The position numbers and the translations under genes were made by a program. The notes beneath the pieces are model-generated. The model had not been told where the DNA came from and ran no database searches. It worked only from the letters and a program-made list of their open reading frames with translations. This document shows, piece after piece, positions 1,641-61,547 of a stretch of DNA of 64,000 bases (within the stretch, counting starts at the first letter, position 1; each line of letters starts with the position of its first letter). This stretch comes from Vitellaria paradoxa (taxonomy: Eukaryota > Streptophyta > Magnoliopsida > Ericales > Sapotaceae), in contig CM034238.1 of assembly GCA_019916065.1 (NCBI GenBank), positions 29,995,246-30,059,245 of the forward strand, given 5' to 3'.

Positions 1641-3057
1641 TGCATTCATGGGTTGTATGCTATAATTATCATAAACTAGAGTATTATATTATGAGATCAC
1701 GATTGTAAAAAGTGAAAAAGGACTCTGGATATCCCTATGTATCTAGGCATAACGGTTTTCGTGCATAGCCGAACCCCTAGACCCACTATCTCTGATTACA
1801 AAAACTAGTTAAGAGTTATCAAAAAGGGTCTTTTGTTATGATTTCAAAAATATAAATCAAAATACTTTTTCAAAGCTTGAATTTCTTGACATACCCATTT
1901 TGAAAATGTCAGGTGGCGACTCCTAACCTTTGTAAACATACTTTTTCATATTTAGGCGATCTTAGATGGATCATGTCATAATAAAGACTCATGACCCATG
2001 CTTGTCAGCCCTGGTAAAGTCTTTGGCGGCTAACCCAAAATGTAGGCCAGGCTTAGGCCAAGCTCAATGAAGTTTGGGTTCTGTCCCAACAAGTTTGGGC
2101 CATTCTAAGACCTCTGGCACAATTTTTAGGAGCTTCCAGGACATCCCGCACACTTTTTGGAGAGAATTAAACAAATTAGGTGAAAATTTAGTTCAATTTG
2201 GATTCTCTAGGACCAAGTTATGTCTATTTGAAAACTCCTGCTCTGAAATGGGCAAAAACAGAAAAATGGTCAGCCAAATCTTTTGCCTAACCTAAAGGCA
2301 CCACCAGAATGACTCCCCCTACCATTTTTTGGTATGAGAAGTCTAAAAATGCCATCAATGGGACTCTAAGAAACTTTATGAATCTATGAAAATTTGACAA
2401 ATTTTGCAAATGAAGCTGCGAAGAGACCTCTTAAGGTTTGACTTGACCAGACTTAGCTATGCCATTACCTTAAGAATGAACCCTCAACATTTTTATGCAG
2501 TTTAAGGATATTTTAAATTTGTCTAGATGCTCAAATTGTGTTTGAGGTGCCAGTAGTTTCCTTCTCGCTGACAGGAGCTATTTTGAATCGACAGAGCTCG
2601 GATGACCTTGGAATGGCATTTTGGCTGTTCAGAGCTATGTTCTATGTTCTCTAGAATGTCTTGAGATGTTGTGTATCTTTTTGTCTATTTTTTGCTTGAT
2701 CTGGGCATTCTCGTTGATACCAGCCTTCGGGTGCATTAGTAGAGGTCATTCTTAACTACTAGACTGAATTGACCATTAATTCTGGATTTTGACTCTTCTA
2801 TTAATGTTAGGATCTTCAATTTGGTGCCTTGGACATGCCTATGCACTTTGGTAACCTTTTGCCTTGATCTAGGCCTTTAGTTTGGTTTCTCCCAGCTCTA
2901 GGGGTATAACCAACATTTTGCTAATTGTTTACTTTTTGTTGAATTTTGGCACTTGACATATCCTAGATTAAAGAAAGTTAATCAGTAGAGAATCAGTCAA
3001 TTACAAGCATTAAATATTGTAAATATTTAATGAGGGGGCAAAATTGGGGTGTCAACA
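1641..3057 (+). mobile_element. 3' part of a long LTR, ending in TGTCAACA
   Basis: The segment from about 2050 matches 21540-22589 and 25400-26445 through the shared terminus AATTGGGGTGTCAACA. In the other two copies the similarity stops exactly at this terminus and different sequence follows, which marks it as an LTR 3' end (final CA). The LTR start lies outside the window. The segment containing GTGGCGACTCC near 1915 recalls Tat-type gypsy LTRs, but that assignment is tentative. Short ORFs inside look incidental. Confidence 0.6.
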
Positions 3058-3288: not shown

Positions 3289-4473
3289 TGACCGACCCTG
3301 AAATGTGTTCGGGTTCTACCTCTCAAGTGCAAGAGGGTGGTCGTAGTCTTACTCGGTGAGAACTGAGGTCATCTCCTACAGGGAGGGCTGTGTTAAAAGA
3401 CACTAGACTTGTTCTCTTAATTAGTAGGTGAGCCTAAGCTAATCTAAACTAATTTTTGAATTACAAAGTGATTTGAATATGGCTGGGTTGAGAATGGTGG
3501 AGCGAAGCAAATTGTGATATTAAACTAGAATGCAAATATTGAAAATAAACTAACTAAAATGATCTTGGCTTCGAACCAAATCCAGTAGTGGGTAGTGGTT
3601 TACTCAAATGCATTTATAACTCAACCTAACAAACGCACATGCATTGCTAGGTAGGAAGATATTTCATTAAAAACTAATTTATGGAATTCAGAGTAAGCGG
3701 AGGCTTTTGAAATTGGTTTCAGACTCACCGGGACATTGAATCGAACACCTAGTGTGCATGAGCATCAACTCATAACTAGACTTCAATTATAACACAGGTG
3801 AATCGGTTTCTTAAGAAAACCTCATGTTTTGGTTTTATGAAAATAAGGTTCGAATCACCGGGCCATTGAACCAGCCACTTGGTTTGCACGAGTGGCCAAT
3901 CGTAACCAAGCTTTAGTTTTAACACGGGTGACTGATTTTGTAAGAAAACCTAATTTGGGTCTTGGAAAATCAGATTCAAGAGAACCCTAACTTACTACGA
4001 AATTCCAATTAAAAGTCCAAAATATATTTTGTTAAATAAAACTCGTTTACATTTGAGTTCACCAACTACTTCACCACTTTCAATGGCTTGAAGCCAAGAA
4101 CAAACCCTAGCCTAACATTGCGAAAGCATTAACAAAGCCTTTCGAAAAGAAAATAACCTTCATCAAGCACTCAAACACGAAAATGAAGGATTATAGAAAT
4201 AAGCTAAAGCAATTTCGAAAGCAAATCAAACACTAACAATGACTACGAAGTACTACAAAGTGAAAATAAAGAACAAAGATAAAGAAATTAATAAACTTTT
4301 AATTAAAACGAAGTAACGAATGAAACTTACCAATTAATCTTAATACGAAGATGAAAAATAAAGTTTTCGTCAATCCAACACGAGATGAAAACATCTAACC
4401 CTAATCTAAACTAAACTAAGAGAAAGAGAAGAAGTGCGTAGGGTTTCGACCCCCTCCTACATCAGATTTTAAA

Positions 4474-4484
4474 CCTTTTATATC
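4474..4484 (-). promoter_or_regulatory. TATA box of the 3' LTR
   Basis: Minus strand reads GATATAAAAGG. The equivalent sequence is at 10533-10543, and AATATAAAAGGG is at the same place in the related solo LTR (60473-60484), downstream of the GCGCCC array in element orientation. Confidence 0.55.
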
Positions 4485-4561
4485 AACGTATATTATAAGG
4501 ACATAAAGGTAAAAATATAGCTCAAACTTATTCTAAACTTGTGCTGGAAGAGTCCTCATGG

Positions 4562-4768
4562 GCGCCCATGGCTGAGGTGGGGCGCCCATGGTACAAGTGT
4601 TTGATGAAGTCCTCAAAGAGATAGCCAAAAACAGCAGTCAGAACTCTCTCTCTGTGGGCGCCCACCTAATGAAGAGTGGGGCGCCCAAGGGTCCTCAAGG
4701 GCGCCCATGGGTCTAGGTGGGGCGCCCATGCTTGTGGTGGGGCGCCCATGGGTCTAGGTGGGGCGCCC
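4562..4768. promoter_or_regulatory. Phased GCGCCC box array, 3' LTR
   Basis: GCGCCC starts at 4562, 4582, 4658, 4681, 4701, 4722, 4742 and 4763. Most copies are GGGCGCCCA, so each is a palindrome. The tandem spacings are 20, 20, 21, 20 and 21 bp, about two helical turns, with one of 23. In element orientation it lies upstream of the TATA box, so a U3 enhancer or protein-binding array is plausible; binding is not shown. Confidence 0.6.
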
Positions 4769-5330
4769 ATTTGCAAATACAGTGAACAGTTCTTCTTTGA
4801 CAGCTTTCTGTCCCTGACTTCCGATTTAATTTTGACATTTAAGATGACAGATTCAGGCTTCGGCTAAACCAGAAAAGTTGTAGGGCTTCGAGTCTTCTTT
4901 CCAACGCAAAAAGAATGGAACCATTTCGAGTTGTGACGAAAAAGTTATGGCTAGAAGACTGAGAGGGTGTTGAGCTAGAGCTTCAACCGCACACCACTTC
5001 AACTAGTTTGAACTTCAAACCACTTCCTTCTCCTTGGCACCCATGGTAGTCGATCTTATGCCTTGGGATGGCTCTTGGGAAGTTGAAGAAGTCTTGGGAG
5101 TCTTTGGACTCTTCTTGCACTTTCTTTATTTTGGCTTACATTGGCTCCTCCTCACATGCAACCTTGGTGTTGTTTGGGCCAAAAACACCATATTATATCA
5201 CCTAAAATATACACACACCAAGAATGCATGGAAATGAGATAATCATGCTAACACATCACCAATAATAACTGTAAATTCATAATTAGCATGCTCAATATAT
5301 ATATAATTGTACAATAATGCATGCTAATCA

Positions 5331-5341
5331 CACCCCCCAAC
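5331..5341 (-). other. Polypurine tract of the gag-only element
   Basis: Minus strand reads GTTGGGGGGTG immediately before the 3' LTR start TGATTAGC. The same tract lies at 16331-16341 and 62143-62153. It is the expected plus-strand primer of reverse transcription. Confidence 0.8.
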
Positions 5342-7618
5342 CTAGACATTGCTAGTCCCTAGCAATGAGTGCAATCAAACCATGAGGTATAAGAACAAAT
5401 GCAAGGGCACCCACAACATGTAAGCTCTTATTCAAATCAAAATAAGACAAAATAAAAACTAACTAAGGTGATGTCCGTTTTCGTGGGAGACACACGACCA
5501 CACTTAGCGCGTGAGGCAAGCCCTTTAAACCCCTAGGTTCCCCCTAGTGGACGAGTTAGGTCTCGTGAGGGTTTACAGTGATGCTACCCACGAACATCTA
5601 TGGTATGGTCTCAAGGTGTCAAAGAGTGATTAAGGTCAGTAACAAATCAAGTTCAAGCTTAACAAGTCACAAAACTTAAATATCATGTGTAATTCCCAAG
5701 TGCTAAGCATGAATGCATGCACTATCAAAGTTGGAAAAGCATGTGTGCAAAATAGTGTCATTTATTCAACAAGGTCTCGAAAGCATAATTGGAACTAAGT
5801 TTTGACCTCAAAAGCTCACAAGGTAGATCACTCATAGAAAGAAACTCACTCATTAAGGGTTCACTCATACCTATGAGCACACAATGCAATGCTCTCCTAG
5901 TTGCACACAACCACACGAATAAGTGAGTGAATTGAATTGAAGTCCCAATGCCATGCAATAGATTACGCCACACAACCTACACAAGTCCACTACATGCACA
6001 CATAAGTATTGTTCACTTAGAATCCGCTAGGTCTTTGATCTGGTTGTAACTTGGCCATAGGTAGAGGCTAACAATGAAAGATATGGAAATCAAAGCACAT
6101 GTCTTGGGATAAAGATGTTCAAGTACGTACAAGTCCCAAACTACCCATTTCCTTTCTATACCCTAACCAACAACATGAAGCTTATTCACAAATTTACAAA
6201 CTACTTTTGGGACACTCTTAGCAACTGCATTACAAAACATAAATCCCACAATTGAATAAACAAAAGGAATGAGAAAATATTTTTTTCTTTTTTTTTCTTC
6301 TTTTTTTTTGTATCCCTTTGTTTTTTTTTTTTTTTTTTGGTTTTTTGTTTTTGAAATGATGAAGAATGAACTATACAATGTATAAATTCTCATCCCAGCA
6401 CTCACCCTCATTTGGCTCTCAAAAGCTTATATTCCCAACCCCACATTCCCAACTTAGACTTTGAAGCACTTTCATAGCCCAAGACATGTGAGGGTTGGCT
6501 TAAAGTGTGTGAATAGGGTGTAGGGGATATCATGTGTGAGGAGAATCAAAAAGAGAAAACTTTATATCACATACTTTATTTTGAGGCTTCAAGTTGGTTC
6601 TTAAGACAATGTTATATCAAGAAAGGACAAAAAGGCCCAAAATAGCAAAGAGGGCCTAGCATCATGTTCTAAGCTCGTAAACAACTCCTATGCACCAAGT
6701 GACTACTCATGCAAGTGTGTGATGCAATTGGGGCATTGAAAACCAAAATAGAGAACAATTGAGCTGAAATAATGTGCAACCCCTCATGAAAAGAATAAAT
6801 GGCTCTAAAGCTCACCACTAAAAAGGGTATAAGTCTCTACCCAGTCCAAGGATGCTCCATTGACCAATGTTACATAAAATTCACTCTTAAGCACATAAGT
6901 TCTTCCATAATAGCCAAAAATCCACAAGGTCATGACACACTCAACTTAAATTAAGTTTCCTATCAAAGCTTGAACAAGACTCGCTTATCACTCTCTCACT
7001 CAAATTCACAATCAACCAAACCAAAAGGGCCAACATGCAAGTACAAATGCGCTAAGTCATGTATGTAAGCTCAAAGATGCTCAAAATTTGAAAATTTTGA
7101 TAATTTTAGCACAAATGGTCATCATGTGAACTCTACCCCCGAACCTAAACTAAACATTGTCCTCAATGTGAGAACTATGAAGCATATATGGGTCCGTAGT
7201 GTGCAAAGTAAGTATGATGATGATGAGCATAAAGAGTAATCAATATGTGACACATAAGCCAAGCATGCACTCAAAACAAGAATCCCCATAAGCAATAAAG
7301 AACACCCCCCAACCTAGTTTCTACAGCACTTCCAACAACAACCAACAACATATAGCCAAGTGTTATGCTCAAAATGTAGAAACAGAAGGTAAAAAGGGTG
7401 GATATTACCTCAAGAGCTTCCTTATTTGAAGAAAAAAAAAACTATACAAGAGAAAAGGTTAGAAAGAAAAGAAAAGAAAAGAAAAAGAGAATAAGACAAG
7501 AGAAAGAGTTAGTACACAAGAAAAAAAATAAGAGAAGAAAATCAAACCAAAAAAACATAAGAAAATAAGAAAAAGAAAACTCTAATCTACTATGTACAAA
7601 GACAACAAAGAAGAAGGG
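5342..7618 (-). other. Shared 3' non-coding module
   Basis: About 2.3 kb between gag and the polypurine tract with no credible ORF. Long stretches align with 16343-18295 (minus) and with 58232-59871 plus 61553-62142 (plus). Strongly conserved blocks include the one at 5510-5590 and the one around 6020-6180, and an A/T homopolymer zone (6280-6350) recurs in each copy. Conservation between elements with unlike LTRs suggests a cis function such as packaging, dimerisation or 3'-end processing (inference). Confidence 0.6.
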
Positions 7619-7801
7619 TTATCCAACACCCTCTCTATCCCATGCATCCACAAATGGTTCAAGAAATAAAATATTTTCTTTGGGCCCATGAAGCACCAAA
7701 GGTGGATGCTCGTCAAGTGTAAAACACGTCAAGGGATGTAAGGCCGAGTGAGGTTCTTGAAACCTCGGATGTGGCCATAATGCATGCAAGGACATGGACA
7801 T
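7619..7801 (-). pseudogene. Out-of-frame C-terminal tail of gag
   Basis: This 60-codon open frame, ending DAWDREGVG, matches the relative at 18296-18478 at about 38 of 60 residues with no gaps. In the relative it reads in the same frame as the preceding gag motif (GIERL-EPA); here it does not. The two differ by 11 bp net in a CCATGT-type microrepeat just upstream. The tail is therefore probably the ancestral gag C-terminus, lost here by a recent frameshift and replaced by a short different ending. It is unlikely to be a separate gene. Confidence 0.55.
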
Positions 7802-9099
7802 GGCATGGATATGGCGGGTTCAAGTCTCTCAATACCCAGAAAATCAATGTACTCTCCCCCAATGTCTACTATCTCCCCCCAGTGATGATCGGTCACATGA
7901 TCACTCATAATCCCCGAAGTGAACTTCTCAGGTGGGGCTGAGTCAAGAGGTAAGAGGTGCGCACTACTCTCAACCTCAAGTGAATAAGTGAGTGAGCAAG
8001 GATCAACTGACTCAATGATATGCTCCTCGGGCATTGTAACTTGCAATTGCTCAAAGGGAATCAAAAGACTCTCAATAGGGCCCGGGGTGGTCTGGGTGGG
8101 CTGAGCATCAAACTCAGTAGTAGGAAAGGACTGAATGTCTCCCTGACTCTCAAAATGTGGTAAAGAAATCTCTTGAATGGGAGAGTCCACAGGAAAATGG
8201 GAAAGACACTCATCCCAAACATCATCCCTAGTGTGGTTAGCGCAATTTTCCCACTCAGTGCCTATGGTCTCAAATTGTGCATCATAAGGTTCACTAGGCC
8301 AATAGTCTTGGGGTTCCTCAGACTGGCCCTCAATGAGTGGAACATAGTTAGGACATGCAAAATCTGAGTAATCAGGCTCCACGCATATGTTACTTCCAAG
8401 GGATGGATCATGAGGATCAAATGAAGTAGAAGCATGCGGGAAAAAGTCAGTGTGGCTTTCAAGTACATATGGTTCAAATCTAGTTTCAAGTCTTTCCCGT
8501 GGCCTGGTGTGTTCATAGAAAAATTCAAGGAATGACCATGCCTCACCCGGTGTGAGGTCAAGAAATTCCTTCCCCAAAACTATATCAAACGCCTGGTGCA
8601 ACTCATGAGACAGAGCATTATATAATATGGCTATGATGTCCCCTAACTCTAATCCATGACTTGGGAAAGTGTCCAAAAGTATGTTAAATCTCTCCCAGCA
8701 TTTATAAAATACTTCACCCTTCCTTTGATAAAAATTTCTAATTTGAAAGCCATGGGTGAAGGTTTGATGAATAGGGAGGAAATGTTCAATAAAAGCTTGA
8801 CAACACTGATCCCAAGTGGTCCATTCACCAAAATTATAGCACCAGTCACCAGCCACACTTCGTAAAGACAAAGGAAAGAACATGATCCTAAGCCTCTTAC
8901 TCAGTCTAACATCATCACATAAGCCACACACTGCCTCAAACCTATCAAGATGAAGACATGGGTCTTCCTCCTCGTGCCCGAAAAATTGGGGTAAGTGGTG
9001 ATAGGTCTCCAATGTATAGTCATATCCAAATTGGTTACTTAGAGACTCAATGTAGGCTTGGGCATCAAAGGGACCATAATTGAAATCACCAAAATCCAT
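7729..9099 (-). CDS. gag: Retrotransposon gag protein (gag-only element)
   Basis: 456 residues. Residues about 35-190 form the retrotransposon-gag capsid-like domain of Athila/Tat gypsy elements, with HLDRFEAVC, PLSLR-VAGDW, TTWDQCCQAF, FYKCWERFN and LTPGEAW-FLEFFYE. This domain assembles the cytoplasmic particle that packages element RNA. The remaining 260 residues are acidic and rich in Pro, Ser and Glu; there is no CCHC zinc knuckle and no protease. The ATG lies 228 nt downstream of the primer site and is the first long frame. There are no internal stops, which fits the similar LTRs. The last 25 or so residues result from a frameshift relative to the copy at 18296. It probably works with, or competes with, the gag of an autonomous partner (inference). 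Confidence 0.85.
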   Translation of the reverse strand: MDFGDFNYGPFDAQAYIESLSNQFGYDYTLETYHHLPQFFGHEEEDPCLHLDRFEAVCGLCDDVRLSKRLRIMFFPLSLRSVAGDWCYNFGEWTTWDQCCQAFIEHFLPIHQTFTHGFQIRNFYQRKGEVFYKCWERFNILLDTFPSHGLELGDIIAILYNALSHELHQAFDIVLGKEFLDLTPGEAWSFLEFFYEHTRPRERLETRFEPYVLESHTDFFPHASTSFDPHDPSLGSNICVEPDYSDFACPNYVPLIEGQSEEPQDYWPSEPYDAQFETIGTEWENCANHTRDDVWDECLSHFPVDSPIQEISLPHFESQGDIQSFPTTEFDAQPTQTTPGPIESLLIPFEQLQVTMPEEHIIESVDPCSLTYSLEVESSAHLLPLDSAPPEKFTSGIMSDHVTDHHWGEIVDIGGEYIDFLGIERLEPAISMPCPCPCMHYGHIRGFKNLTRPYIP

Positions 9100-9326
9100 G
9101 TTTATGATAAGAACACAAAAATGAAAACAAAATGAGAGAAAACAAAAACTACACTAAAATACAACGTAAGTTAACTAACATGCAAGCTAAGTTATATGAT
9201 ATGCAAATGAATATGTTACAATGCAAAAGAAAAAAAACTACTAATAAAGAGCTGGAGAAAAGAAAAATTCACCCAATTTCTCAAATGAACTCCCCTTTAA
9301 CTCCCAAGTCTAGCACTTAGTTGCCC

Positions 9327-9344
9327 TCCCCGGCAACGACGCCA
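9327..9344 (-). other. Primer-binding site (tRNA-Asp type)
   Basis: Minus strand reads TGGCGTCGTTGCCGGGGA, one base (C to T) from the complement of the plant tRNA-Asp 3' end. It is separated from the LTR at 9351 by the spacer AGTTTT, as at 55282-55287. Confidence 0.88.
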
Positions 9345-10532
9345 AAAACTTGACCGACCCTGAAATGTGTTCGGGTTCTACCTCTCAAGTGCAAGAGGGT
9401 GGTCGTAGTCTTACTCGGTGAGAACCGAGGTCATCTCCACAGGGAGGGCTGTGTTAAAAGACACTAGACTTGTTCTCTTAATTAGTAGGTGAGCCTAAGC
9501 TAATCTAAACTAATTTTTGAATTACAAAGTGATTTGAATATGGCTGGGTTGAGAATGGTGGAGCGAAGCAAATTGTGATATTAAACTAGAATGCAAATAT
9601 TGAAAATAAACTAACTAAAATGATCTTGGCTTCGAACCAAATCCAGTAGTGGGTAGTGGTTTACTCAAATGCATTTATAACTCAACCTAACAAACGCACA
9701 TACATTGCTAGGTCGGAAGATATTTCATTAAAAACTAATTTATGGAATTCAGAGTAAGCGGAGGCTTTTGAAATTGGTTTCAGACTCACCGGGACATTGA
9801 ATCGAACACCTAGTGTGCATGAGCATCAACTCATAACTAGACTTCAATTATAACACAGGTGAATCGATTTCTTAAGAAAATCTCATGTTTTGGTTTTATG
9901 AAAATAAGGTTCGAATCACCGGGCCATTGAACCAGCCACTTGGTTTGTACGAGTGGCCAATCGTAACCAAGCTTTAGTTTTAACACGGGTGACTGATTTT
10001 GTAAGAAAACCTAATTTGGGTCTTGGAAAATCAGATTCAAGAGAACCCTAGCTTACTACGAAATTCCAATTAAAAGTCCAAAATATATTTTGTTAAATAA
10101 AACTCGTTTACATTTGAGTTCACGAACTACTTCACCACTTTCAATGGCTTGAAGCCAAGAACAAACCCTAGCCTAACATTGCGAAAGCATTAACAAAGCC
10201 TTTTGAAAAGAAAATAACCTTCATCAAGCACTCAAACACGAAAACGAAGGATATAGAATAAGCTAAAGCAATTTCGAAAGCAAATCAAACACTAACAATG
10301 ACTACGAAGTACTACAAAGTGAAAATAAAGAACAAAGATAAAGAAAATAATAAACTTTTAATTAAAACGAAGTAACGAATGAAACTTACCAATTAATCTT
10401 AATACGAAGATGAAAAATAAAGTTTCCGTCAATCCAACGCGAGATGAAAACATCTAACCCTAATCTAAACTAAACTAAGAGAAAGAGAAGAAGTGCGTAG
10501 GGTTTCGACCCCCTCCTACATCAGATTTTCAA

Positions 10533-10543
10533 CCTTTTATATC
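10533..10543 (-). promoter_or_regulatory. TATA box of the 5' LTR
   Basis: GATATAAAAGG on the minus strand. It would start the genomic RNA of the element. Gag follows about 1.4 kb downstream, after the rest of the LTR, the primer site and the leader. Confidence 0.55.
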
Positions 10544-10618
10544 AACGTATATTATAAGGGCATAAAGGTAAAATCATAGCTCAAACTTATTCTAAACTTG
10601 TGCTGGAAGAGTCCTCAT

Positions 10619-10807
10619 GTGCACCCATGGCTGAGGTGGGGCGCCCATGGTACAAGTGTTTGATGAAGTCCTCAAAGAGATAGCCAAAAACAGCAGTCAG
10701 AACTCTCTCTCTGTGGGCACCCACCTGATGAAGAGTGGGGCACCCAAGGGTCCTCAAGGGCGCCCATGGGTCTAGGTGGGGCGCCCATGGATCTAGGTGG
10801 GGCGCCC
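10619..10807. promoter_or_regulatory. Phased GCGCCC box array, 5' LTR
   Basis: Intact GCGCCC at 10642, 10760, 10781 and 10802, with GCACCC versions near 10619, 10717 and 10740. One unit fewer than the 3' LTR. The 20-21 bp phase is kept. Confidence 0.55.
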
Positions 10808-11369
10808 ATCTGCAAATACAGTGAACAGTTCTCCTTTGACAGCTTTCTGTCCCTGACTTCCGATGCGATTTTGACATTTAAGATGACAGATTCAGGCTTC
10901 GGCTAAACCAGAAAAGTTGTAGGGCTTCGCGTCTTCTTTCCAACGCAAAAAGAATGGAACCATTTCGAGTTGTGACGAAAAAGTTATGGCTGGAAGACTG
11001 AGAGGGTGTTGAGCTGGAGCTTCAACCACACACCACTTCAACTAGTTTGAACTTCAAACCACTTCCTTCTCCTTGGCACCCATGGTAGTCGATCTTATGC
11101 CTTGGGATGGCTCTTGGGAAGTTGAAGAAGTCTTGGGAGTCTTTGGACTCTTCTTGCACTTTCTTTATTTTGGCTTACATTGGCTCCTCCTCACATGCAA
11201 CCTTGGTGTTGTTTGGGCCAAAAACACCATATTATATCACCTGAAATATACACACACCAAGAATGCATGGAAATGAGATAATCACGCTAACACATCGCCA
11301 ATAATAACTATAAATTCATAATTAGCATGCTCAATATATATATAATTGTACAATAATGCATGCTAATCA

Positions 11370-14777: not shown

Positions 14778-16330
14778 TGACTGATCCTAAAATTTGTTCG
14801 AGTTCTATGTCTTAAGTGTAAGAGGGTGGTTGTAGTTTTACTCGATGAGAACTAAGGTCATCTCCACAGGGATGGCTTTGTTAAAAGCTCTAAACTTGTT
14901 CTCTTAGTTAGTAAGTGAACCTAATTTAATCTAAACTATATTTGGATTTAGGGAATTCTTTGAATGTGGTTTAGGTTTTTGGGATGATTGGAAGTGATGT
15001 TTTGCAGTTAAAATTTAACAAAACTTGAGAACACAACTTTGAAAGGATGAAAATTGATTTAACGAAATTAACTTTTAATTTAAAGACTTGGTCTCAATCT
15101 AGTCCTCTAGAGGTTTCAAAGTTATTGGCTTTAATATTTTGATAACTCAATCTAATAGCACATATAGTGTTAGATCGGAAAACATACTTTAAAAATTTTT
15201 TTGTAGAGAATATATAGCATTAGGATTTTGAAATTCTTTTCAAACTCACCAGGACATTAAACCGAACCTTTGGTGTGTACGAGTTTCAACTCAAAACCAA
15301 GATTCGATTTTAACATGGGTGATTCGAATCCTAAGATTAAACCTAATGTTTATGTAATCTACAATCTATTAGAAAGGTGTTTATTCATTGAAAATCATGA
15401 TATTCAAGCCAAACAAAGTTTTTCACCTCTATGTTCCTAGATCAAAACCAAGTAGAAACCCTAGCCTAACATACTTAAGCTTTGAAGAAGAAAATATACA
15501 TTCAAACAATCCATGAATAAAAAGTAGAGATTCAAAACTAAAGAAATGAAAAGAAATATGAAATAAATCTGAAACTTAAAACTTGGAATTAAAATAATTA
15601 AATGCAAAGTCACTTACATGTGTAAATCCTAAGAGCGAAGACTCATTCAAAACCTAATGATTGCTTAAGGTATCTCCCCTTTGTAATTTCAGTAATCATG
15701 CCTATTTATAGGTTTACAACAATTAAGGGTAAAAAGGTAAATTTACAATTCAAAAATATCAAAAATTTGTTGGAGGGAGGTCAGGGTGCCCAACACAAAG
15801 TTGGTGTGCGCCCATGGCTATTGCACATCCAAGTGCCTGACAAAAGTTCTGAGAGAAAAGTAAAGAAATGGCTCTCAATGAGCACATGGCTAAGACACAC
15901 GAAGGGCGCACACGGAGAGATGCACACCCCTAACACAGGGGATGCACATAAATAGGGGCGCACCACCCCAAACATAGGGAGGCGCACATGAAAAAGGGCG
16001 CACCACCCCAAACACAGTGGGTGCACTCCCATGGCTATCTTTGGCCACTTCAGTTACATCTTTGTTTCTTCATCCTCCTTCAAGCCATCAACATGTTTCT
16101 TTCTTTAATTCCATTCATTCCCAACCCAGTATTCATCAAAGTAGATTCTTCTTTCAACTTATATTGTTCTCCAAAGCCACTTTATTCTTATCAAATTCCT
16201 CCATTACTGACAAAACAAGTACCAAAGATAAAAATATCACAAAATACCAATAAAATCATTGAAATAAGTTGATAACATGCTCAAATAGGTGATGGAATGA
16301 TGCACAAATATATCAATGATTGTGTGTAAT
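14778..16330 (-). repeat. 3' LTR of the truncated relative
   Basis: Starts TGACTGATCC and ends GTGTAATCA on the plus strand (minus: TGATTACAC...GGATCAGTCA). Blocks shared with the LTR at 3289 include the termini and the segment at 14840-15350. About 0.5 kb shorter than that LTR. The region at 15786-16030 holds diverged GGGCGCAC boxes about 20 bp apart, in place of GCGCCC. Confidence 0.8.
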
Positions 16331-16342
16331 CACACCCCCCAA

Positions 16343-19137: not shown

Positions 19138-20270
19138 TAACTCTAGATATAGATTAGGAGTAATCATTTTTATACTATTAGAGACTAACTTTAAAAACTA
19201 AAATAAAAGTTAGCGCCTCCTGCATAACTTAAGAAGAGAGTTTCGCTTCAGTTGATAAAAGACAATTAGCACCTTATGCTTAATTGGAAGAAGAACCCAA
19301 ATTCAAAGAGTAAGAGACAATTACCACTTAACGCATAACTGGAGAATGAAGCCTTGCTCTATTTGATAAAGAACAGTTGGCGCCTAGCATATAATTGGTG
19401 GAAAGGAACGTTGCTCTAGGGGAAAGTATAGTTAGCGCTTAGCACATAACTAGGAAATGGTTGACTAGAGAAAGGAGCCTTACGCCAAATAAGAAGGATA
19501 GTTAGCACCTTACACGTAATTAGAAAATGGAACCTTGCTCCAAATAAGAGATGGTTAATGCCTTGTGTTTAACTAAGAAAAGGTTTTCTAGTTCTAAGGT
19601 AGCACCTCACGTTATGGTGACCGGACTCAAGCCTTTTACCTAGCTACATATGTATCCTGTTAAGGAATTAGGTCTACGTAGTCTAAGACTAAAATGAAAG
19701 TTAGCACCTCATGCATAACTTAGGAAGAGAGCTTCGCTTTGGATGAAAAGACAGTTAGCACTTTGTGCTAAACTGGGAAATGGAGCCCAGCCCCAGATGA
19801 GAGAGAATAGTTAATGCCTAGTGCAAAACCAGAGGAAAAGAGACTTGCTCCACTGGGAAAGGATAGATAGCACTTAGCACATAACTAGGAAACAGTTAAC
19901 TAAAGGAAGAAGCCTCACTCCAAACAAGAACGAATGTTAGCATGTAGCGTATAACTAGAAAAGAGAGCCTTACTTTAGAGAAGAGAGCATTAATGCCTTA
20001 CATTTAACCAGGGAAAGGATCCTAGTTTTAAGGTAGCACCTCATACTATAATGACTAGACTCAAGCCTTCTGCTTAAGCTGCCTCTGTACGCTGTGAAGG
20101 GATCAGGTCTATGTAGCTCTATTTAGAAAAATAGTTAATGCCTAGCACATAACTTTGGAAAGGAGCTTCGCTCCAGACTAAAGAGAAATAGTTAGCGCTT
20201 AGCTCATAACTGGAGGAGGGAGCCTCACTCCAATGAGGAGCTCAAAGTCCCAGGGTGTGCCTTACTCATG
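19138..20270 (-). repeat. Degenerate array, inverted copy of the 1-905 family
   Basis: Units of about 60-70 bp such as GTTAGCGCCTAGCACATAAC followed by GAGCCTTGCTCC. They are the reverse complement of the units at 1-905. Many contain the same GAGC-NNN-GCTC hairpin. No ORFs of note. Confidence 0.7.
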
Positions 20271-21120
20271 TAAATGAGTATTATCATTTAGGAAACAAAC
20301 TCAACATAAATCAAGAGCTCAGTTCCTAATGATAATGATCAAGTCTATGTGAAAAGCCTAGGATCCTAATATTACGTGAGTGGTGCAGTTTCTATGTTCT
20401 AGTATGTAATGGACATATTAAATGTAATGACAACTTATATTCTAACATGGATGACAGTTCAAGGATGCATGTCAGATATGTCTAAAGGAATCATGACTTA
20501 GAAATCATCAGCTTAGCCAATCCTAATTCATTCTCAATCTATAAAGCCTTGCTCACTCAAGTGAATGCTCTGGATTGATAAGTATTTGATTTCCAAATTT
20601 GTGTTAGCCCTACTAGGTATATGTTCGTATGTTTGAATGTGTTCTAGCATGTCAAGGCATGTGTCGATGTGTCAAAACATGGCGTATGGCATGTCAAAGC
20701 ATGTGCTAACATGGTAAATGATGTCCTAGTATGTTATATCATGATGTGGGATGGTGATTGAGCATGGTAGCATGGAATAACATGATAATATAACATGCTG
20801 GCATGGTCAAGGCATGATATAGCATCGCATAGCATGGCAATATGGTATGTTAGCATGATATATGATGACAATGACATGGTACAGAATGGTAGAGATGACA
20901 TAGCATGGTGGGAATGATGTTTAGTATGACTTAGTATGGTAATTTGATGTTATGACCTGGCATGAAATGGTGAACATGGTATTATAAATAGTATAGTATA
21001 ACAGAATGATGTTATGGCATGGTATGACATGTTAGTATGAAGTGGGCATGTCATATGCATAATGTTTGAAATTTTGTAAAATTTGTCTCAAGTAAATTCA
21101 GTCAATATGATGTTTTAGGT
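20271..21120. repeat. CATG-rich low-complexity tract
   Basis: Irregular short repeats around GGCATG, ATGGTA and TAGCATG fill 20400-21060. The second copy is at 24190-24990. No protein-coding or RNA-gene signal was seen. Confidence 0.6.
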
Positions 21121-22589
21121 CCAGTCCAAACTTGAGTTATCTTAATCATACAAATAAATTGAATTGAACAATCAAAAAAAAATTTTCTAGAGAGAGAAAA
21201 TTTTACCGATGAAAGCTTTTTCTAGAGAGAGAAACTTTGGACTTGAGAGCTCTAACCGCCAAGTGTGGGATGAATGAAATGAGGAAGGGAAGGCTTCCTT
21301 ATACAGGCCTTTTGGCCAAACAAAACTTTTGCCCAATCAAAAAAATTGACAAACATTGCCCATTTTGTTGGGCGAGCAAGTTTGCTCGATGAAATGGGCG
21401 AACAAGCTTGCTTGATAAAATAGGCGACAATCTTTACCAATGCCTTCTAGCAACCCTTTCTACTTAAGAGGATAGGAGAACATGCCTGCACAGCACCACG
21501 AATGGCTATAATTGCATAACAAGCTGGGTGAAGCTTCTTGCAAGTCAAAATAGGAAAAAAAAAAGCTTTCCAAATGGCTATTTGGCAAAGTGTTTCTTGG
21601 CCAGGCCAAAATAGGACAAGTTTGAGCCATTCTAAGACCTTTAGCCCGGTTTTCAAGAGCTTTCAGAACCTTCCAGGCACTTTTTGGAGAGAATTAAACC
21701 AATTAGGCCAAAATTTGATTCAATTTGGATTCTCTAGGACTAAGTTATATCTATTTGAAAATTGTTACTCCGAAATGGGTAGAAACGGAGAAGGGATCAG
21801 CCAAATCTTTTGCCAAACCCCTAGAGGCACCACCAGGATGACTACCCTACCTGTTTGGGTATGAGGAGTCCAAAAATGCCATCCGAAAGACTTTGGGGCA
21901 CCTTTATGAATTTATAAAAATTTGACAAATTTTGTAAAGAAAGCTATAGAGGGACCTTTTAAGGTTTGACTTAACTTGACTTAGCTATGCCATTAACTTA
22001 ACGAATGATCCTTCAACATTTTTGTGCAATTTGAGGATAATTCTAACTTTGACCGGAAGCTTAAATTGTGTCTAGAGTGCCATTAGTTTTTTTCTCGTCA
22101 GTAGGAGCTATTCTGAGTTGGCAAAGCTCGGATAACCTCTGGAACGACACTTTGGCTATTCTGATCTATGTTCTATGTTTTTTGGAATGTCTTAGGATAT
22201 TGCGTATCTTATTGCCTATTTTTGGCTTGATCTGGGTATTCTGGTTGATACTGGCCTTTAGGTGCGTCGGTTGAGGTCGTTCTTGATTTCTAGACTAAAT
22301 TGACCCTTGATTCTGGATTTTGCTTCTTCTATTAATGTTGGGATCTTCAGTTTGGTGTCTTGGACATACCTGTGCAGTCTGGTGACCTTCTACCTTGATC
22401 GAGGTCATTAGCTTGGTTTCTCCCTATCTCTAGGGGTATAACCAGTATTTTGCTAATTGTTTGCTTTTGTTGAATTCTGGCACTTGACATGTCCTATAAT
22501 TAAGGAAAGTTAATTGGTAGAGCACCATTCAATTAAAAGTATTAAATATCGTAATTATTAAATGAGGGGGAAAAATTGGAATGTCAACA
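21121..22589 (+). mobile_element. LTR 3' part ending TGTCAACA (copy in tandem duplication 1)
   Basis: Similar to 2050-3057, ending in ATGTCAACA at 22589, after which exon-like host sequence begins. The open frame at 21538-21864 and its counterparts at 25435 and 2074 are conserved only because the DNA is repeated; no domain is recognisable. Confidence 0.6.
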
Positions 22590-22677
22590 AAATGCTTGTG
22601 CAATGTTGGACTTGACAGCAGTTCGTGATATCTTCCTCAGAACAGGTTATAAAAATGAAGAGGGTGCAGAAAATGAG
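22590..22677 (+). pseudogene. Exon-like fragment of an unrecognised gene, copy 1
   Basis: An open frame of about 25 codons contains LTAVRDIFLRTGYKNEEG and ends at a consensus donor (GAG|GTAAGC). It directly follows the LTR terminus, so upstream coding sequence is missing. I do not recognise the family. The frame and donor together suggest a real exon of a host gene that was cut by the LTR insertion and then duplicated. Confidence 0.4.
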
Positions 22678-23771
22678 GTAAGCAAATATTTTACTCCACA
22701 ATTTGTTTAATCGATTAACTGTAATCTATAAATTGAGGGGAATTGCAGGTAATAATATCATTAGCATGGCCTTTTGTGCTTCCTTTAATAATCTCTTTAT
22801 TTATCTCTCTTGTCTTCCCCCCCCCAAAGAAAATAAAAGAAAAGAAAAAATCATAAAAACTTAATTAATTTGAGCACTTAGTAAAATTTGGTGTCATACT
22901 GAAATATTGCCAAAAACAAATATAAAGAAAATCTGTGGAATTAGTGATCTCTTGTAAAGATACGTATATCGTTATACACGCCACCTAATTAGTAGTTTTG
23001 AATTCAAAGTTGGAAGCCCATATAAATGACTAATACAACTAGTTTTATTTGACTTGTTCATTATTACTCTCGAAGCATTGCAAATTGTGTGACGTGGGAG
23101 GGATTATTGGATTCCATGTTTCATATTCATTTTTATACCATTTAATTTATACCTATCTTACACTCATCTTTTTCTTTTTTTTTTTTTAGGTTCTTCTTTG
23201 CAGAATTCTGAGGTGTGTTTCATTTTTACTATTGTGATTTTATTAATTGATTTTTATTTTTTAATTTGAGTTAATCAATTGCATCACCTATCTTATACCT
23301 TTAAACATTTGTTCATTTGAGTTCTTATTTATAGGTTACTTTAGGTTTGGGTAATGGAAAGCAATTTTTTGAGGTAGTAGATTGAAAGTGTTTTGAACTT
23401 ATTTATTTGCACAACAAAATTGTATTTTATCAAATTTTTCTACAAAAAAGTTTTTGGAGTTACTAGCTACTTTTTTTAGTGGGTAAAGTCTACAATTAAA
23501 TGTTCTACATTTATAGTTACTAGCTGTTATTTTTAGGAGCAAAGGCCGTTTTTTGCTTGAAACCTCATATATATGATTTACCCTTCAACCTAGTATCTAC
23601 ACAATAAGCTCCTACAGTTATTTATTTTTTATTACTTATTATTGTGGTATCTAAGCTGATATTTTTCTTTGATTTTACTATCATTAATTATGCTGTTGAT
23701 CTTAGGGTAGTGGAGTGATAAATTTTTACCTAAGCCGAAGTTTAAAAATGATAGGGAGAAACCTGGCAATA

Positions 23772-26700: not shown

Positions 26701-27651
26701 AAAAAATAAAAAACTTAATTAATTTGAGCACTTAGTAAAATTTGGTGTCATACTGAAATATTGCAAAAAACAAATATAAAGAAAATCTGTGGAATTTGTG
26801 ATCTCCTGTAAAGATATGTATATCTTTATACATGCCACCTAATTAGTGGTTTTGAATTCAGAGTTGGAAGCCCATATAAATGATGGATACAACTAGTTTT
26901 ATTTGACTTGTTCATTGTTACCCAAGCATTGCAAATTGTGTGACGTGGGAAGGATTGCTGGATTTCATGCTTCATACATTCATTTTTATACCATTTAATT
27001 TATACCCATCTTACACTCATCTTTTCTTTTTTTTTTTTTTTGTTTTGTTTTTTTTTTTTTTGGTTTTTCTTTGTAGAATTTTAAAGTGGGTTTCATTTTT
27101 ATTATTGTGATTTTATTAATTGTTTTATTTTTTAATTTGAGTTAATCAATTGCATCGCCTATCTTATACCTTTAAACATTTGTTCATTTGAGTTCTTATT
27201 ATAGGTTACTTTAGTTTTGGGTGATTGAAAGCAGTTTTTTGAGGTAGTAGATTGAAAGTGTTTTGAACTTATTTATTTGCACAACAAAATTGTATTTTAT
27301 TAAATTTTTCTACAAAAGAGTTTTTGGAGTTATTAGCTATTTTTTTAGTGGGTAAAGTCTACAATTAAATGTTCTACATTTATAGTTACTAGCTGTTATT
27401 TTTAGGAGCAAAGGCCGTTTTTTGCTTGAAAACCTCATATATATATGATTTAGCCCTTCAACCTAGTATCTACACAATTAAGCTCCTACAGTTATTTATT
27501 TATTTTATTACTTATTATTGTGGTATCTAAGCTGATATTTTTCTTTGATTTTACTATCATTCCTAATTATGCTGTTGATCTCAAGATAGTGGAGTGATAA
27601 ATTTTTACCTAAGCCGAAGTTTAAAAATGATACGAAGAAACCTGGCAATAA
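23772..27651 (+). repeat. 3.9-kb tandem duplication, copy 2
   Basis: Co-linear with copy 1 with scattered substitutions and small indels, for example a 37-bp difference near 25100 at a direct repeat. At the junction ...GCAATAAC|TAGGAAAGG, the right side of copy 1 meets the left side of copy 2 with at most 2-3 bp of shared sequence. Its LTR part ends at 26445. Confidence 0.9.
26446..26532 (+). pseudogene. Exon-like fragment of an unrecognised gene, copy 2
   Basis: Counterpart of 22590-22677 with changes that break the first half of the frame. The second half (FLRTGYKNEEG) and the donor GAG|GTAAGC are kept. The longer plus-strand copy of the following intron has an expanded T-rich tract at 27025-27063. 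Confidence 0.4.
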
Positions 27652-27786
27652 CACTTGTTGTGCATATAAGGTTGAGCCTTTTCTAATTTTTCACGATGAT
27701 CAGTCCATTCCTTCTGAAAGTAACTACATAATGAGGGCTCAATTTTTGTTGAATAATGTTCTCGATTTCCCTTCCTTAGGTTTCAG

Positions 27787-51956: not shown

Positions 51957-52488
51957 TGATAGCATTTGAAAAGTGCTATTACAAACTCCACTTTTGCATA
52001 GCTATTAATATTAATACATTTAAGTAGTTTATTTTTAAGATTTATCACTATTTTATTACTTATAGTATTAAGTTTCTTAATTGTAGGAAAAAGGGTAAAA
52101 TAAGCGAGATTATCAGCAATGGAAGTGGCTGCCAAGGAGAAAAAGATGGTCTAAAGTTCAAGATGGTTGAAGTGGTGTGCAACTGAAATTTCAGCTTGAT
52201 ACCCTATCAGTATTTTGACCATATCTTCTCACTCACAATTCCGATTGACCTGATTCTTTTTGGGTTGGGAAGAAGACTCAAAGGGCTACAACTTTCATGT
52301 TTTATCCGGAGCCTAAATCCATCATTTTCGAGGTCAAAATTGCATTGGAAACTGAAGATGGAAAGCTGTCAGAAGCAAGACACAGATTGAAAAGAAAGTA
52401 CATGTGGTCTAGACCACCACGGATGATCCGGACCATAGAATGATTATTTGCGCAGATGGACTTTATTTTTAGGGTTTCTCATTCCCGC

Positions 52489-53625: not shown

Positions 53626-55101
53626 TGTAATACCCCGAATTTTGATGTTAATATAATTTGATGGTTTTAACATGTTTTGGGCATGTTAGTATGTTAATTA
53701 AGTAAGTTTAGTCATTAAAGATAACTTGGGGGTGTGAATTTTGGAGGAATTGGGCAAAATAGCTCAAAAATCAACATTTTGACTCGGGGGCATGTAGAGG
53801 GGCGCCCAAGGTAGAGGAGGCGTGCCCATGGATCTAGGACAGGTGCCCATGGTCTATGAGGGGCGCTCCACTTGTACAGAAAATCAGCAGAAGGGTGTTC
53901 TCTAGTTGGAAGGCCGAGACATAACTCTATTGACACCTATGACAAGCTAGGGGTGAGGGGAGACCTGAGGATTACTATTTGGGGATTAAAAATATTGTTA
54001 TATATATATTAGATTGATTTGATGCAAGAGAGAGAGAGAGAGAAGTGGCTTGAAAGAGAGAGAACGGGTGAGAAGAGCAAAGGAGAAGAAAAAGACCACC
54101 AGTAGAGGTTTTCAAAGGTAGGTTTCCAAATCTTTATAGAATTCAAATTCCTTTTACAAGATTGAAATTAGAACCCTAAGAAACCTTCCTATGTTATTCA
54201 TTTTTAGTTTTGATCAAGGAGGGAGGAGATTGACCTCATCAAAGTTTGAGGGTTTGGAAGCTCAAGACACCTCCATTTTGATCTATCTTTTTACCACTCA
54301 AGGTAGGGATTTCTAGTCTCATTTTAGCATATATGAGATGTATTTGAGCTAGTAAACACTTCTATGAAATTTATTTAAGATTTGGAAACCTTGGAAGTGG
54401 AGTTTGTGTGGATGAATGGTTGTGTGTATATATATGTATAGGTTGGCGCAATTTTGATTAAACATTAAAAAGTGAATTGAAATGTGATTTGAGACTTAAG
54501 AATGAGAATTCAAGGATTAAGTATTGGTTAGAATTGAATTTATTTTTACAATATTGTTGTGTATAAAGGTGCATAGTCTAAATTGGTGATGTCAATGAAT
54601 GATTTTGATTCTAGAGTATAGGTGGTAACTAGATACATCATAAAATGCTTGCATGTGTGGAATACATATCATATATGTTTGTTTGAGACTTGTGGGCACA
54701 AACGGACCCGTGCTCACATCCCTACAGACTTTGATGCAGGTACAAGCAAAACAATCAAGTGGGTTGATGTGTTGGGACTAGGAGGTTATGCATGAGCCCT
54801 ACCAAGCTTATCAAAGCTTTTGGTCATCTAGTTTAAATTTCTTTTGGGAATTGTAACGTTGTACATTTATGAACTCTTTCAATTTGGTTGTAATGGCCAT
54901 AAGGCCTAAGTTATGTAATTTGGGAATGGTGTATGTGGTTGGTGACATGGAAATAGTCAGGGTTAAACTTATGTTATTCTATCTTATGTCTTAGGCTCAC
55001 TAGCTTATGTTGCGTTGCTTTGATTATGGGATTGGTTATATTAGTGCATGTTATGTGTGTTTATCACTCACCCCTCGGGTCACGAGATCTAGGGCGTGAC
55101 A
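53626..55101 (+). mobile_element. Solo LTR (gypsy, TGTAATACCCC family) nested in the 5' LTR
   Basis: 1476 bp, TGTAATACCCCG...GGGCGTGACA, flanked by GATTT (53621-53625) and GAATT (55102-55106), a target duplication with one mismatch. No internal region. An (AG)n tract lies at 54026-54043. Its 3' third matches 45180-45651. Confidence 0.8.
53802..53868. promoter_or_regulatory. Phased GCGCCC boxes in the unrelated solo LTR
   Basis: GCGCCC at 53802 and one-base variants at 53822 (GTGCCC), 53843 (GTGCCC) and 53863 (GCGCTC). Spacings are 20, 21 and 20 bp, as in the gag-only element. Confidence 0.55.
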
Positions 55102-59871: not shown

Positions 59872-59876
59872 GTCTT
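59872..59876. repeat. Target-site duplication GTCTT, left
   Basis: Identical to 61548-61552, flanking the nested solo LTR. Confidence 0.88.
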
Positions 59877-61547
59877 TGATTGAGCACATAAAATGCACAC
59901 TTACTATGATAATGTGAATGGTTTTAGGTGTTTTATTTACATAAATCTCTTATTTTCTAAGGAAAGAAGCTAATTTATGTGCTTTTGGACTTTTGTAGGT
60001 TTTGGTGCTTCACTTGGTGAAGGAGGATGAAAAGAAAGGTCAAAGGAGCAAGGAAACAAAGTTGGTTAATATGGACCAGGAGCATGGGCGCCCCACCTCA
60101 AGCATAAGCGCCCCACCAGAAGCATAGGCGCCCCACCTTATAGCAGATGGGCGCCCACAGAGAGCCAATTTTGGGAGAAGAGCAGGTTCTCAGAGGCCTT
60201 TCATCGAACAGTTGGAGAGCAGCCAACATGGGCGCCCCACCTAGACCCATGGACGCCCCTGTCTTACCTTGGGCGCCCCACTCTTCATCAGATGGGCGCC
60301 CACAGAGGGGGGTCCTGCCTGCTGATTTTGGCCAGTTCTTTGAGGACTTCATCAAACACCACAAGCATGGGCGCCCCACCTCAAGCATGGGCGCCCATGG
60401 GGACTCTTCCAGCACAAGTCCAGCAGAAAATTTAGAGTGTAATTTTACCATTTTACCCCTAAATTTTGTAATAATATAAAAGGGTAGAATTTTGATAATG
60501 GGGGGTTCAAAAACCCTAGGAAAAGTTTAGAATTTCTGTTCTAAGAATTTTATGTAAAATTTACTTTCGAATTGCACTGAGGATTTGGCTTCGTTGCTTT
60601 CGCTTTGGAATATTCAAGTCCGATTTTGTTTTCGCATACAATTCACGTGTAAGTTTTAAGTTGTTAGTTCATTTTTAATAAGAATTTCATGTTCTCCGTG
60701 TTTTGTCGTTAAAGTTCGCTTCGTAGTGTTCGTAGACGGATTTTGTATTGATTTGCTTTTAAATTTGTTCTAAACCTTTTCGATTCATTTCATTTTTGTG
60801 TTTTGTTGCACATTGAAGATGTTTTTCTTTTCGAATCAATTTTCTTACCCTTTCGTTATGCTAGGCTAGGGTTTTTCTTGGTTTTAACCTAGGAGTGTAT
60901 TGAATTGAAGGAGTGGAATTTGGATAGTTCAAAAAATGTAAGGCACAGAATTCTAGATTAATTTTCGAAATCGAATTGCCTGTGATATAGTTGAACTTCG
61001 ATTACGCTCGTGTGAATCGAAGTCAATTCCATGTCCCGGTGGTTTCGAACTTGATTTCAAAAACCTAGAATTGTGAGTTCTTTATGAAAAGGGTTTTTTT
61101 TAACGCCAAATCTACCGACCTAATATTACAGGTGTAAGAATTAGGTTGAGTTAACTACATATCCAAATTCAGCCTTCAAGGACACTACCGGACTAGGTTA
61201 AAACCAGGTATTTTCATTAATCCGAGTGTTTAAGTAATTCACGTATTGGTTAAGTGTTTGAATTGATTACTCCTTTAGTGTGTCATTTTTAGTTTAAGTG
61301 TATTTCTTTTAAATTTTCAAATTGTTTTTCCTAACTATTTTCCAATCAAATTTTCAATTACTTATTTGAAAACCCTAAAAAGATTTTCATCTTTTCTCTT
61401 TAAAACTTTTGCGAGTGCTTTCAAAATCAAGTTTTTCAACATTTAGGCACCCCCTTGTTCCCTGTGGAGATGACCTAGGATCACCTAGAATAGACACAAC
61501 CGACCTCTTACACTTGAGAGAACCCGAGAAAATTTTGAGATCGGTCA
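59877..61547 (+). mobile_element. Solo LTR related to the gag-only element
   Basis: 1671 bp, TGATTGAGCA...GATCGGTCA, with perfect 5-bp duplications. The termini, TATA region and GCGCCC array match the LTR at 3289-5330 in reverse complement. A solo LTR forms by recombination between the two LTRs of an inserted element. Confidence 0.9.
60088..60396. promoter_or_regulatory. Phased GCGCCC box array, nested solo LTR
   Basis: GCGCCC at 60088, 60108, 60128, 60151, 60232, 60273, 60296, 60371 and 60391, plus ACGCCC at 60253. Spacings within clusters are 20, 20, 23; 21, 20, 23; and 20 bp. The TATA-like AATATAAAAGGG is at 60473-60484. Confidence 0.6.

What the first reader, a model, noticed from the sequence alone, without database searches (positions are those of the whole stretch)
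4562..4768. GCGCCC palindromes phased at 20-21 bp in several LTR families
The sequence shows GGGCGCCC-type boxes spaced 20, 21, 20 and 21 bp in the gag-only LTR, 20/20/23 and 21/20/23 in the solo LTR at 60088-60396, and 20/21/20 in a solo LTR of another gypsy family (53802-53868). A diverged GGGCGCAC version is at 15786-16030. Two helical turns between palindromes would put binding sites on one face of the DNA. The GC-rich boxes persist in an AT-rich, CpG-depleted setting, with decay visible only in some copies. Inference: a U3 enhancer array, an insulator, or a target for a host or element protein, gained independently or by LTR recombination.
Basis: partly seen in the sequence, partly recalled or inferred. 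Interest (0 to 1): 0.75.

Follow-up and report, generated by a model that had tools for sequence, protein, structure and literature searches.

The report
Palindrome array beside LTR retrotransposon promoters
Several plant-type jumping genes in this stretch carry a row of short mirror-symmetric GC-rich DNA boxes just upstream of their presumed promoter, most likely docking sites for a host protein that switches them on; a similar layout is known from another group of plant retrotransposons.

Summary
GGGCGCCC occurs 20 times in the window against 0.07 expected, and all 20 lie in four LTRs (8, 4, 7, 1). The quoted 20/21-bp spacings are correct, but the "diverged" LTR is spaced irregularly (22, 98, 52, 24, 16, 23). 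The 20-21 bp is the length of a repeat unit that slips: the arrays in the two LTRs of one element differ by one 20-bp unit. Helical phasing is therefore not shown as a separate fact. Boxes are conserved, linkers less so: between two related LTRs boxes match at 62 of 64 bases, linkers at 113 of 144, the downstream promoter at 99 of 157; a stricter test gives p about 0.017. The array lies 72-78 bp upstream of a TATA box in three related LTRs. A three-box piece with linkers sits inverted in an LTR of another family. Best reading: a promoter-proximal palindromic enhancer array in U3, working like the "RM boxes" of Sireviruses but with another core (GGGC-GCCC, not CGG-CCG) and in gypsy-type, not copia, elements. 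The binding protein is unknown. Other genomic copies could not be reached, so conservation rests on few LTRs.

The parts
3289..5330 (-). 3' LTR of gag-only element A (element 3289-11369, minus strand; CAAAA target duplication on both sides; PPT TTGGGGGGTG)
   Evidence: 97.1% identical to 9351-11369; ends, PPT and target duplication
4560..4768 (-). array of 8 perfect GGGCGCCC boxes in U3; spacing 20, 76, 23, 20, 21, 20, 21
4476..4482 (-). TATA box (TATAAAA), 77 bp downstream of the array in element sense
   Evidence: distance counted from these coordinates
9351..11369 (-). 5' LTR of element A, followed in element sense by PBS-like TGGCGTCGTTGCCGGGGA
10619..10807 (-). array in the sister LTR: 4 perfect boxes, 3 changed, one 20-bp unit fewer
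59877..61547 (+). solo LTR C, GTCTT target duplication on both sides, inside element D
60086..60396 (+). array of 10 boxes (7 perfect); spacing 20, 20, 23, 81, 21, 20, 23, 75, 20; a 36-bp repeat at 145-bp distance points to a higher-order duplication
60475..60481 (+). TATA box, 78 bp downstream of array C
14778..16332 (-). LTR B, diverged relative of A
   Evidence: 69% identity over part of the LTR; ends
15784..16026 (-). diverged boxes (GGGCGCAC type), spacing irregular; strong predicted hairpins
15705..15711 (-). TATA box of LTR B (CTATAAA), 72 bp downstream of its last box
   Evidence: core promoter homologous to C
53626..55101 (+). solo LTR E of another family (TGTAATACCCC...GACA), nested in the 5' LTR of element D; flanking duplication not clear
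53800..53868 (+). four boxes (1 perfect, 3 changed) spaced 20/21/20; first three boxes and their linkers homologous to array C, inverted relative to presumed transcription

Best explanation
The boxes are a promoter-proximal cis-regulatory array in the U3 part of related gypsy-type LTRs. Each 20-23 bp unit carries one palindromic site (best version CATGGGCGCCCATG) that is probably bound by a host dimeric transcription factor. The row of 8-10 sites recruits it next to the TATA box 72-78 bp downstream and drives element transcription. Copy number changes by slippage or unequal pairing of whole units and blocks. Selection while elements were active kept the boxes and let the linkers drift. After insertion the boxes decay, in the one LTR pair seen mostly at their central CpG. 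Shown: the array, its position, its unit structure, box-over-linker conservation in one LTR pair, change and unit loss after insertion. Inferred: binding by a protein, activation, and the identity of the protein.
For: 20 sites against 0.07 expected. A and C: boxes 62/64 identical, linkers 113/144 (Fisher p = 0.0004), downstream promoter 99/157. In the strictly orthologous block, boxes 47/48 against non-box 115/142; 338 of 20000 random sets of six 8-mers do as well. Within array A the boxes are 100% alike pairwise but the 13-bp right flanks only 32%. Array to TATA: 77, 78 and 72 bp in A, C and B (counted). B's core promoter is homologous to C's (score 47, maximum of 1000 shuffles 34), and the B/A alignment includes the two promoter-proximal boxes (score 35, shuffle maximum 32). 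Precedent: Sirevirus RM boxes are palindromic, 8-14 per 3' LTR in 11 of 13 elements, and lie just before the TATA box (PMC2829016; abstract and section 9 read, other parts as passages).
Against: No expression, binding or methylation data. Constraint rests mainly on one LTR pair, and under the strict test is modest (p about 0.017), with high identity spread over about 14 bp around the box. Boxes were recognised by consensus, which favours them in within-array comparisons. Element D, of the same kind, has no such boxes, so they are not obligatory. B has non-palindromic, irregularly spaced boxes, and most of its array does not align with A or C. Box CpGs change no faster, significantly, than other CpGs of the LTR pair (3 of 7 against 11 of 48, p = 0.35).
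Confidence: 0.6

Rival explanations
1. A neutral GC-rich tandem repeat: a 20-bp unit expanded by slippage in an ancestral LTR, and what looks like conservation is recent duplication and common descent.
For: One 20-bp unit differs between the two LTRs of one element; two identical 31-bp stretches in array A and repeats 145 bp apart in array C; the strict orthologous-block test gives only p about 0.017.
Against: Right flanks within array A are about 32% alike while boxes are 100% alike; slippage alone homogenises both. Boxes persist between A and C although CpG is depleted in this window (observed/expected 0.41).
Confidence: 0.2
2. The array acts through RNA or single-strand structure: self-complementary boxes fold in the U3 part at the 3' end of element RNA, feeding small-RNA production or affecting RNA dimerisation or stability.
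For: As RNA, array A folds at -102.6 kcal/mol against -74.0 for shuffles (z -6.25); array C z -2.7; B z -3.7 although its boxes are not individually palindromic (part of B as DNA z -3.3); the array holds the lowest z-scores of LTRs A and B (-4.9 and -5.3). PMC10760457 reports, citing Bousios et al. 2016, that small RNAs mapped in excess to palindromic clusters of maize Sireviruses (passages seen).
Against: Any array of palindromes folds well, so this is expected under the DNA-site reading too. E shows no excess structure over its array (z -1.1 and -1.3), five of the six 120-nt windows over array C are at z -0.6 to -1.9 (the sixth -3.6), and the lowest z of LTR C (-4.4) lies outside the array. 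Placement at a fixed distance from the TATA box is not predicted.
Confidence: 0.11
3. Target of an element-encoded or host anti-silencing or insulator protein, comparable to VANC binding-site arrays of VANDAL elements.
For: VANC motifs are arrayed at high density and evolve by tandem repeat formation (PMC5735166, passages seen); the inverted array in LTR E would suit an orientation-free target.
Against: VANC21 motifs are described as arrayed in the same orientation, and 'palindrom' does not occur in that paper's held text. Among ORFs of 120 aa or more, element A shows only a gag, so no element-encoded binder was seen. That VANDALs are DNA transposons whose sites are not tied to a TATA box is recalled.
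Confidence: 0.06
4. G-quadruplex array on the antisense strand.
For: Canonical G3+ loop 1-7 matches on the + strand in array A (4678-4722) and its sister.
Against: No such match in array C, B or E, even with loops up to 12; self-complementary boxes would favour duplex or hairpin.
Confidence: 0.02

Closest known systems
Sirevirus repeated motif (RM) boxes (PMC2829016)
   Same: Palindromic GC-rich boxes, 8-14 per 3' LTR in 11 of 13 elements, 92% of copies in the upper half of the LTR, upstream of a conserved TATA box, CpG-containing, commonly over 85% identical within an element.
   Different: Sireviruses are Ty1/copia and 12 of their 13 RMs have a CGG-CCG core; [quoted passage not shown] The paper states the RM is absent from the classic (copia) retrotransposons it compared.
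Tnt1/Tto1 U3 repeated enhancer boxes
   Same: Short repeated activator boxes in U3 and fast U3 turnover between subfamilies (U3 divergence: PMC1838419, passages seen; the boxes themselves recalled, apart from a mention of symmetric Tnt1 box I in PMC2829016).
   Different: copia elements, different box sequence, fewer copies (recalled).
VANC-binding motif arrays of VANDAL elements (PMC5735166)
   Same: Dense arrays of a short motif that grow by tandem repeat formation within transposons.
   Different: Motif YAGTATTAY, one orientation, elements that encode the binder.
E2F sites of plant cell-cycle promoters (TTTGGCGCC; PMC1779545, passages seen)
   Same: Share the palindromic core GGCGCC; 8 of 12 positions of ATGGGCGCCCAT agree with TTTGGCGCCAAA (this 12-mer is recalled).
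   Different: The T-run outside the core, part of the listed E2F consensus, is missing.

Membership tests
Sirevirus RM boxes | palindromic motif in high copy number within one LTR | tested here: met
   8 perfect boxes in A, 10 (7 perfect) in C
Sirevirus RM boxes | cluster shortly upstream of the TATA box | tested here: met
   72-78 bp in A, B, C
Sirevirus RM boxes | CGG-CCG core signature (12 of the 13 RMs in Table 3) | tested here: not met
   core is GGGCGCCC
Sirevirus RM boxes | carried by a Ty1/copia Sirevirus (PBS TATCAGAGC, PPT AGGGGGAG) | tested here: not met
   PBS TGGCGTCGTTGCCGGGGA, PPT TTGGGGGGTG; gag of A matches PF03732 above its cut-off; the gypsy/Athila-like label is recalled from the look of gag, protease and PBS
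Sirevirus RM boxes | cluster forms the element's CpG island | tested here: inconclusive
   9 CpG per 200 bp at 10751 (observed/expected 0.69), but other 200-bp windows in the LTRs score as high or higher; no CpG-island caller was run
LTR U3 enhancer array | lies in U3 upstream of the core promoter | tested here: met
   by TATA position; no TSS data
LTR U3 enhancer array | drives transcription | not testable with these tools
   needs reporter or CAGE data
Helically phased binding-site array | all sites on one face of the DNA, beyond what unit length gives | tested here: inconclusive
   vector strength at 10.5 bp is 0.72 in A (n=8), 0.73 in C (n=10), 0.91 in E (n=4), but units are duplicates of one another, gaps of 23 and 75-81 bp occur and B is unphased
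E2F site | T-run next to the GGCGCC core | tested here: not met
   no T-run flanks any of the A or C boxes; consensus from PMC1779545
G-quadruplex array | canonical G-runs in all arrays | tested here: not met
   only in the two LTRs of element A

The most novel reading that the evidence does not exclude
GGGCGCCC arrays are a mobile enhancer module: a gypsy-side counterpart of the Sirevirus palindrome arrays, evolved separately and passed between unrelated LTR families by recombination (inverted in LTR E), all addressing the same, still unknown, plant DNA-binding protein.
Probability: 0.25. Interest if true: 0.62.

Novelty: new variant of a known kind. Interest (0 to 1): 0.42.

Why it matters
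Palindrome arrays before the TATA box were described as a Sirevirus feature (PMC2829016), and in maize Ty3 elements were reported generally to lack an obvious peak of structured sequence (PMC10760457, passages seen). If gypsy-type elements have evolved the same layout with another core, palindromic U3 arrays are a repeated solution to the same problem. The shared box would then give a direct bait for finding the host protein and for asking whether the same array also attracts silencing. Exchange of the module between families would explain how unrelated retrotransposons come to share expression patterns.

Tried and rejected
Other copies: the own-genome search (one request, ten tries) did not complete, so the most telling test, many copies of one family, could not be done. 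A pattern scan of viral contigs for three spaced boxes gave 2 contigs. Both hits lie in GC-rich DNA of viral contigs, and L002's is an internally repetitive stretch; neither looks related, and I did not annotate them. The gag protein found no relative at E <= 0.001 among 2176 candidates, so the host species stays unknown.

G-quadruplex reading rejected as the common feature. Rfam: no match at gathering score. Excess CpG change in boxes relative to other CpGs of the LTR pair is not significant (3 of 7 against 11 of 48, p = 0.35); gapped positions were left out, which drops the box in the missing unit. Of the 12 array comparisons (6 pairs, both orientations) with boxes masked, A/C and C/E in the matching orientation reach the floor of the test (p = 0.002, i.e. 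none of 500 shuffles); A/E is about 0.04-0.05 in either orientation and the rest are not significant, array B with A, C or E among them. With boxes unmasked A/E scores 46 against a shuffle maximum of 24.

Literature: GGGCGCCC as text gave 434 papers of which 40 were listed, none about LTR arrays by title. Retrotransposon + GGCGCC + palindrom: 7 papers, none on this by title or abstract start. A looser search gave 154 papers, 12 listed. Searches gave 7, 3 and 11 papers, of which PMC1838419 and PMC2829016 were opened. gypsy + LTR + palindromic + repeated motif + TATA box + retrotransposon: only PMC2829016. So 'not in print' is claimed only for these searches. Bousios et al. 2016 (PMC4728375) is not held and is known here only through PMC10760457.

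Full report
Setting. The window holds nested LTR retrotransposons, by the look of its elements of a plant (an inference; no call named the host). A+T is 64% and CpG observed/expected 0.41. Element A (3289-11369, minus strand) has 2.0-kb LTRs 97.1% identical, a CAAAA target duplication, and among ORFs of 120 aa or more a single one, with a Retrotrans_gag match above its cut-off. LTR B (14778-16332, minus strand) is a diverged relative. Element D (from 51957, plus strand; 3' LTR from 62154) has a gag-like ORF (by eye; no Pfam match) and one with a sub-cut-off protease match (21.9 bits against 24.3); no other ORF of 120 aa or more was listed between the latter and the 3' LTR. Into D are inserted solo LTR C (59877-61547, GTCTT duplication) and solo LTR E (53626-55101) of another family. 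A, B, C and D share the LTR start TGAT and an end in GTCA; the PPT TTGGGGGGTG is seen in A, B and D, and a TGGCG-type PBS in A and D. The labels Athila-like (A-D) and Tekay-like (E) are from memory and no call gave them.

The boxes. All 20 exact GGGCGCCC sites lie in the four LTRs A3 (8), A5 (4), C (7) and E (1), against 0.07 expected in the whole window. Allowing two mismatches there are 78 matches: 8 in A3, 7 in A5, 7 in B, 4 in E, 11 in C and 41 outside the arrays (one GGGCACCC at 5405, 40 at two mismatches). I dropped one of the 11 in C, GGGGGTCC at 60308, as out of register. Spacing is 20-23 bp inside clusters, with gaps of 75-81 bp in A and C. B is irregular.

Unit and slippage. The unit is box plus linker. 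Within A3 all eight boxes are identical, while the 13-bp right flanks agree pairwise in only 32% of positions; in C the figures are 91% and 33%. Two 31-bp stretches in A are identical, and C has a 36-bp repeat at 145 bp. The arrays in the two LTRs of element A, which by the standard life cycle were identical at insertion, now differ by one 20-bp unit and by four substitutions in boxes, three of them CpG transitions. So 20-21 bp is first of all a repeat length. Vector strength at 10.5 bp is about 0.7 in A and C, but the units are not independent, so this is not evidence of selection for phase.

Conservation. In an alignment of A3, A5 and C the A3 and C boxes agree at 62 of 64 positions, linkers at 113 of 144, and the stretch from the array past the TATA box at 99 of 157. 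In the block where boxes are one-to-one orthologous (same spacing 21, 20, 23, 76/75, 20), boxes agree at 47 of 48 and the rest at 115 of 142; 338 of 20000 random choices of six 8-mers do as well. Shifting the box frame by up to 3 bp hardly lowers identity, which fits a site of about 14 bp such as CATGGGCGCCCATG. The evidence for constraint is real but modest, and rests on one pair of LTRs.

Position. The gap from the last box to the TATA box is 77 bp in A, 78 in C and 72 in B, and about 129 in E, where the TATA-like run is ambiguous (counted). The core promoter of B aligns with that of C (score 47, maximum of 1000 shuffles 34), and the A/B alignment includes the two promoter-proximal boxes (35 against 32). 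The rest of array B does not align significantly. Element D has at the same place a single different palindrome, GTGGTCTAGACCAC, 70 bp before its TATA box.

Transfer. The first three boxes of E with their linkers match array C read on the antisense strand (score 53, maximum of 300 shuffles 30; with boxes masked 28, maximum of 500 shuffles 26, p = 0.002, the floor of the test, in one of 12 comparisons), with the same 20 and 21 bp spacing. In E the array is thus inverted relative to the presumed direction of transcription, which rests on the TATA-like run and on recalled LTR ends. Only one copy of E's array is in the window, so it is not known whether the array is a fixed part of that family.

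Structure. As RNA, array A folds better than shuffles (z -6.25), C moderately (-2.7), B too (-3.7; part of it as DNA -3.3). In 120-nt windows the lowest z lies in the array for A and B, but outside it for C; E shows nothing special. This follows from palindromic boxes and does not decide between a DNA site and an RNA role.

Comparison. Sirevirus RM boxes (PMC2829016; abstract and section 9 read, other parts as passages) are palindromes in high copy number upstream of a TATA box. PMC10760457 (passages) adds, citing earlier work, that such palindromic clusters attract small RNAs, and reports the same palindrome in Helitrons and no obvious peak for maize Ty3 elements. The present arrays share layout but not core or element lineage, so they work like RM boxes without being members. 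E2F is the candidate I recall for the core (GGCGCC), but the T-run is missing. No binding protein can be named.

Limits. The own-genome search did not complete (ten tries of one request), the protein database had no relative of the gag at E <= 0.001, and no expression or methylation data were available to these tools.

Noticed in passing
4798-5050 (A3), 10837-11089 (A5), 52126-52371 and 62326-62562 (D LTRs), 35788-35884: A 245-bp U3 domain upstream of the array is 73-76% identical between A and D, the only match inside their LTRs's list; a 97-bp core recurs at 35788 (75%). No match in LTRs B, C or E at E <= 0.01.
   Followed up: partly
52404-52417 and 62594-62606: At the position of the array, element D has one palindrome, with arms GTGGTC/GACCAC in the 5' LTR and GGGGTC/GACCCC in the 3' LTR: both arms changed in step.
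   Followed up: no
19852-27652: Two 3.9-kb copies, 91% identical, lie head to tail without anything between them; 2089-3057 is a third partial copy. Could be a tandem LTR pair.
   Followed up: no
3289-11369: Element A is a gag-only, apparently non-autonomous element; part of its internal region is 76% identical to that of element D (5983-7440 and 58450-59876), a possible helper lineage.
   Followed up: partly
15789-15821 and 16006-16038: Array B is bracketed by a 33-bp direct repeat ending CCCATGGCTAT (79% identical), and its box at 15806 is in the opposite orientation to those at 15904-15996.
   Followed up: no
L002:3280-3620: The IMG/VR hit shows GGGCGCCCACGTC in 21-bp steps, which looks like a short tandem coding repeat; taken as a chance look-alike of the array.
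   Followed up: partly
42628-43677: MULE transposase remnant (PF10551 match in 42628-43068), followed by an ORF at 43261-43677 with a cysteine-rich end, by eye.
   Followed up: no
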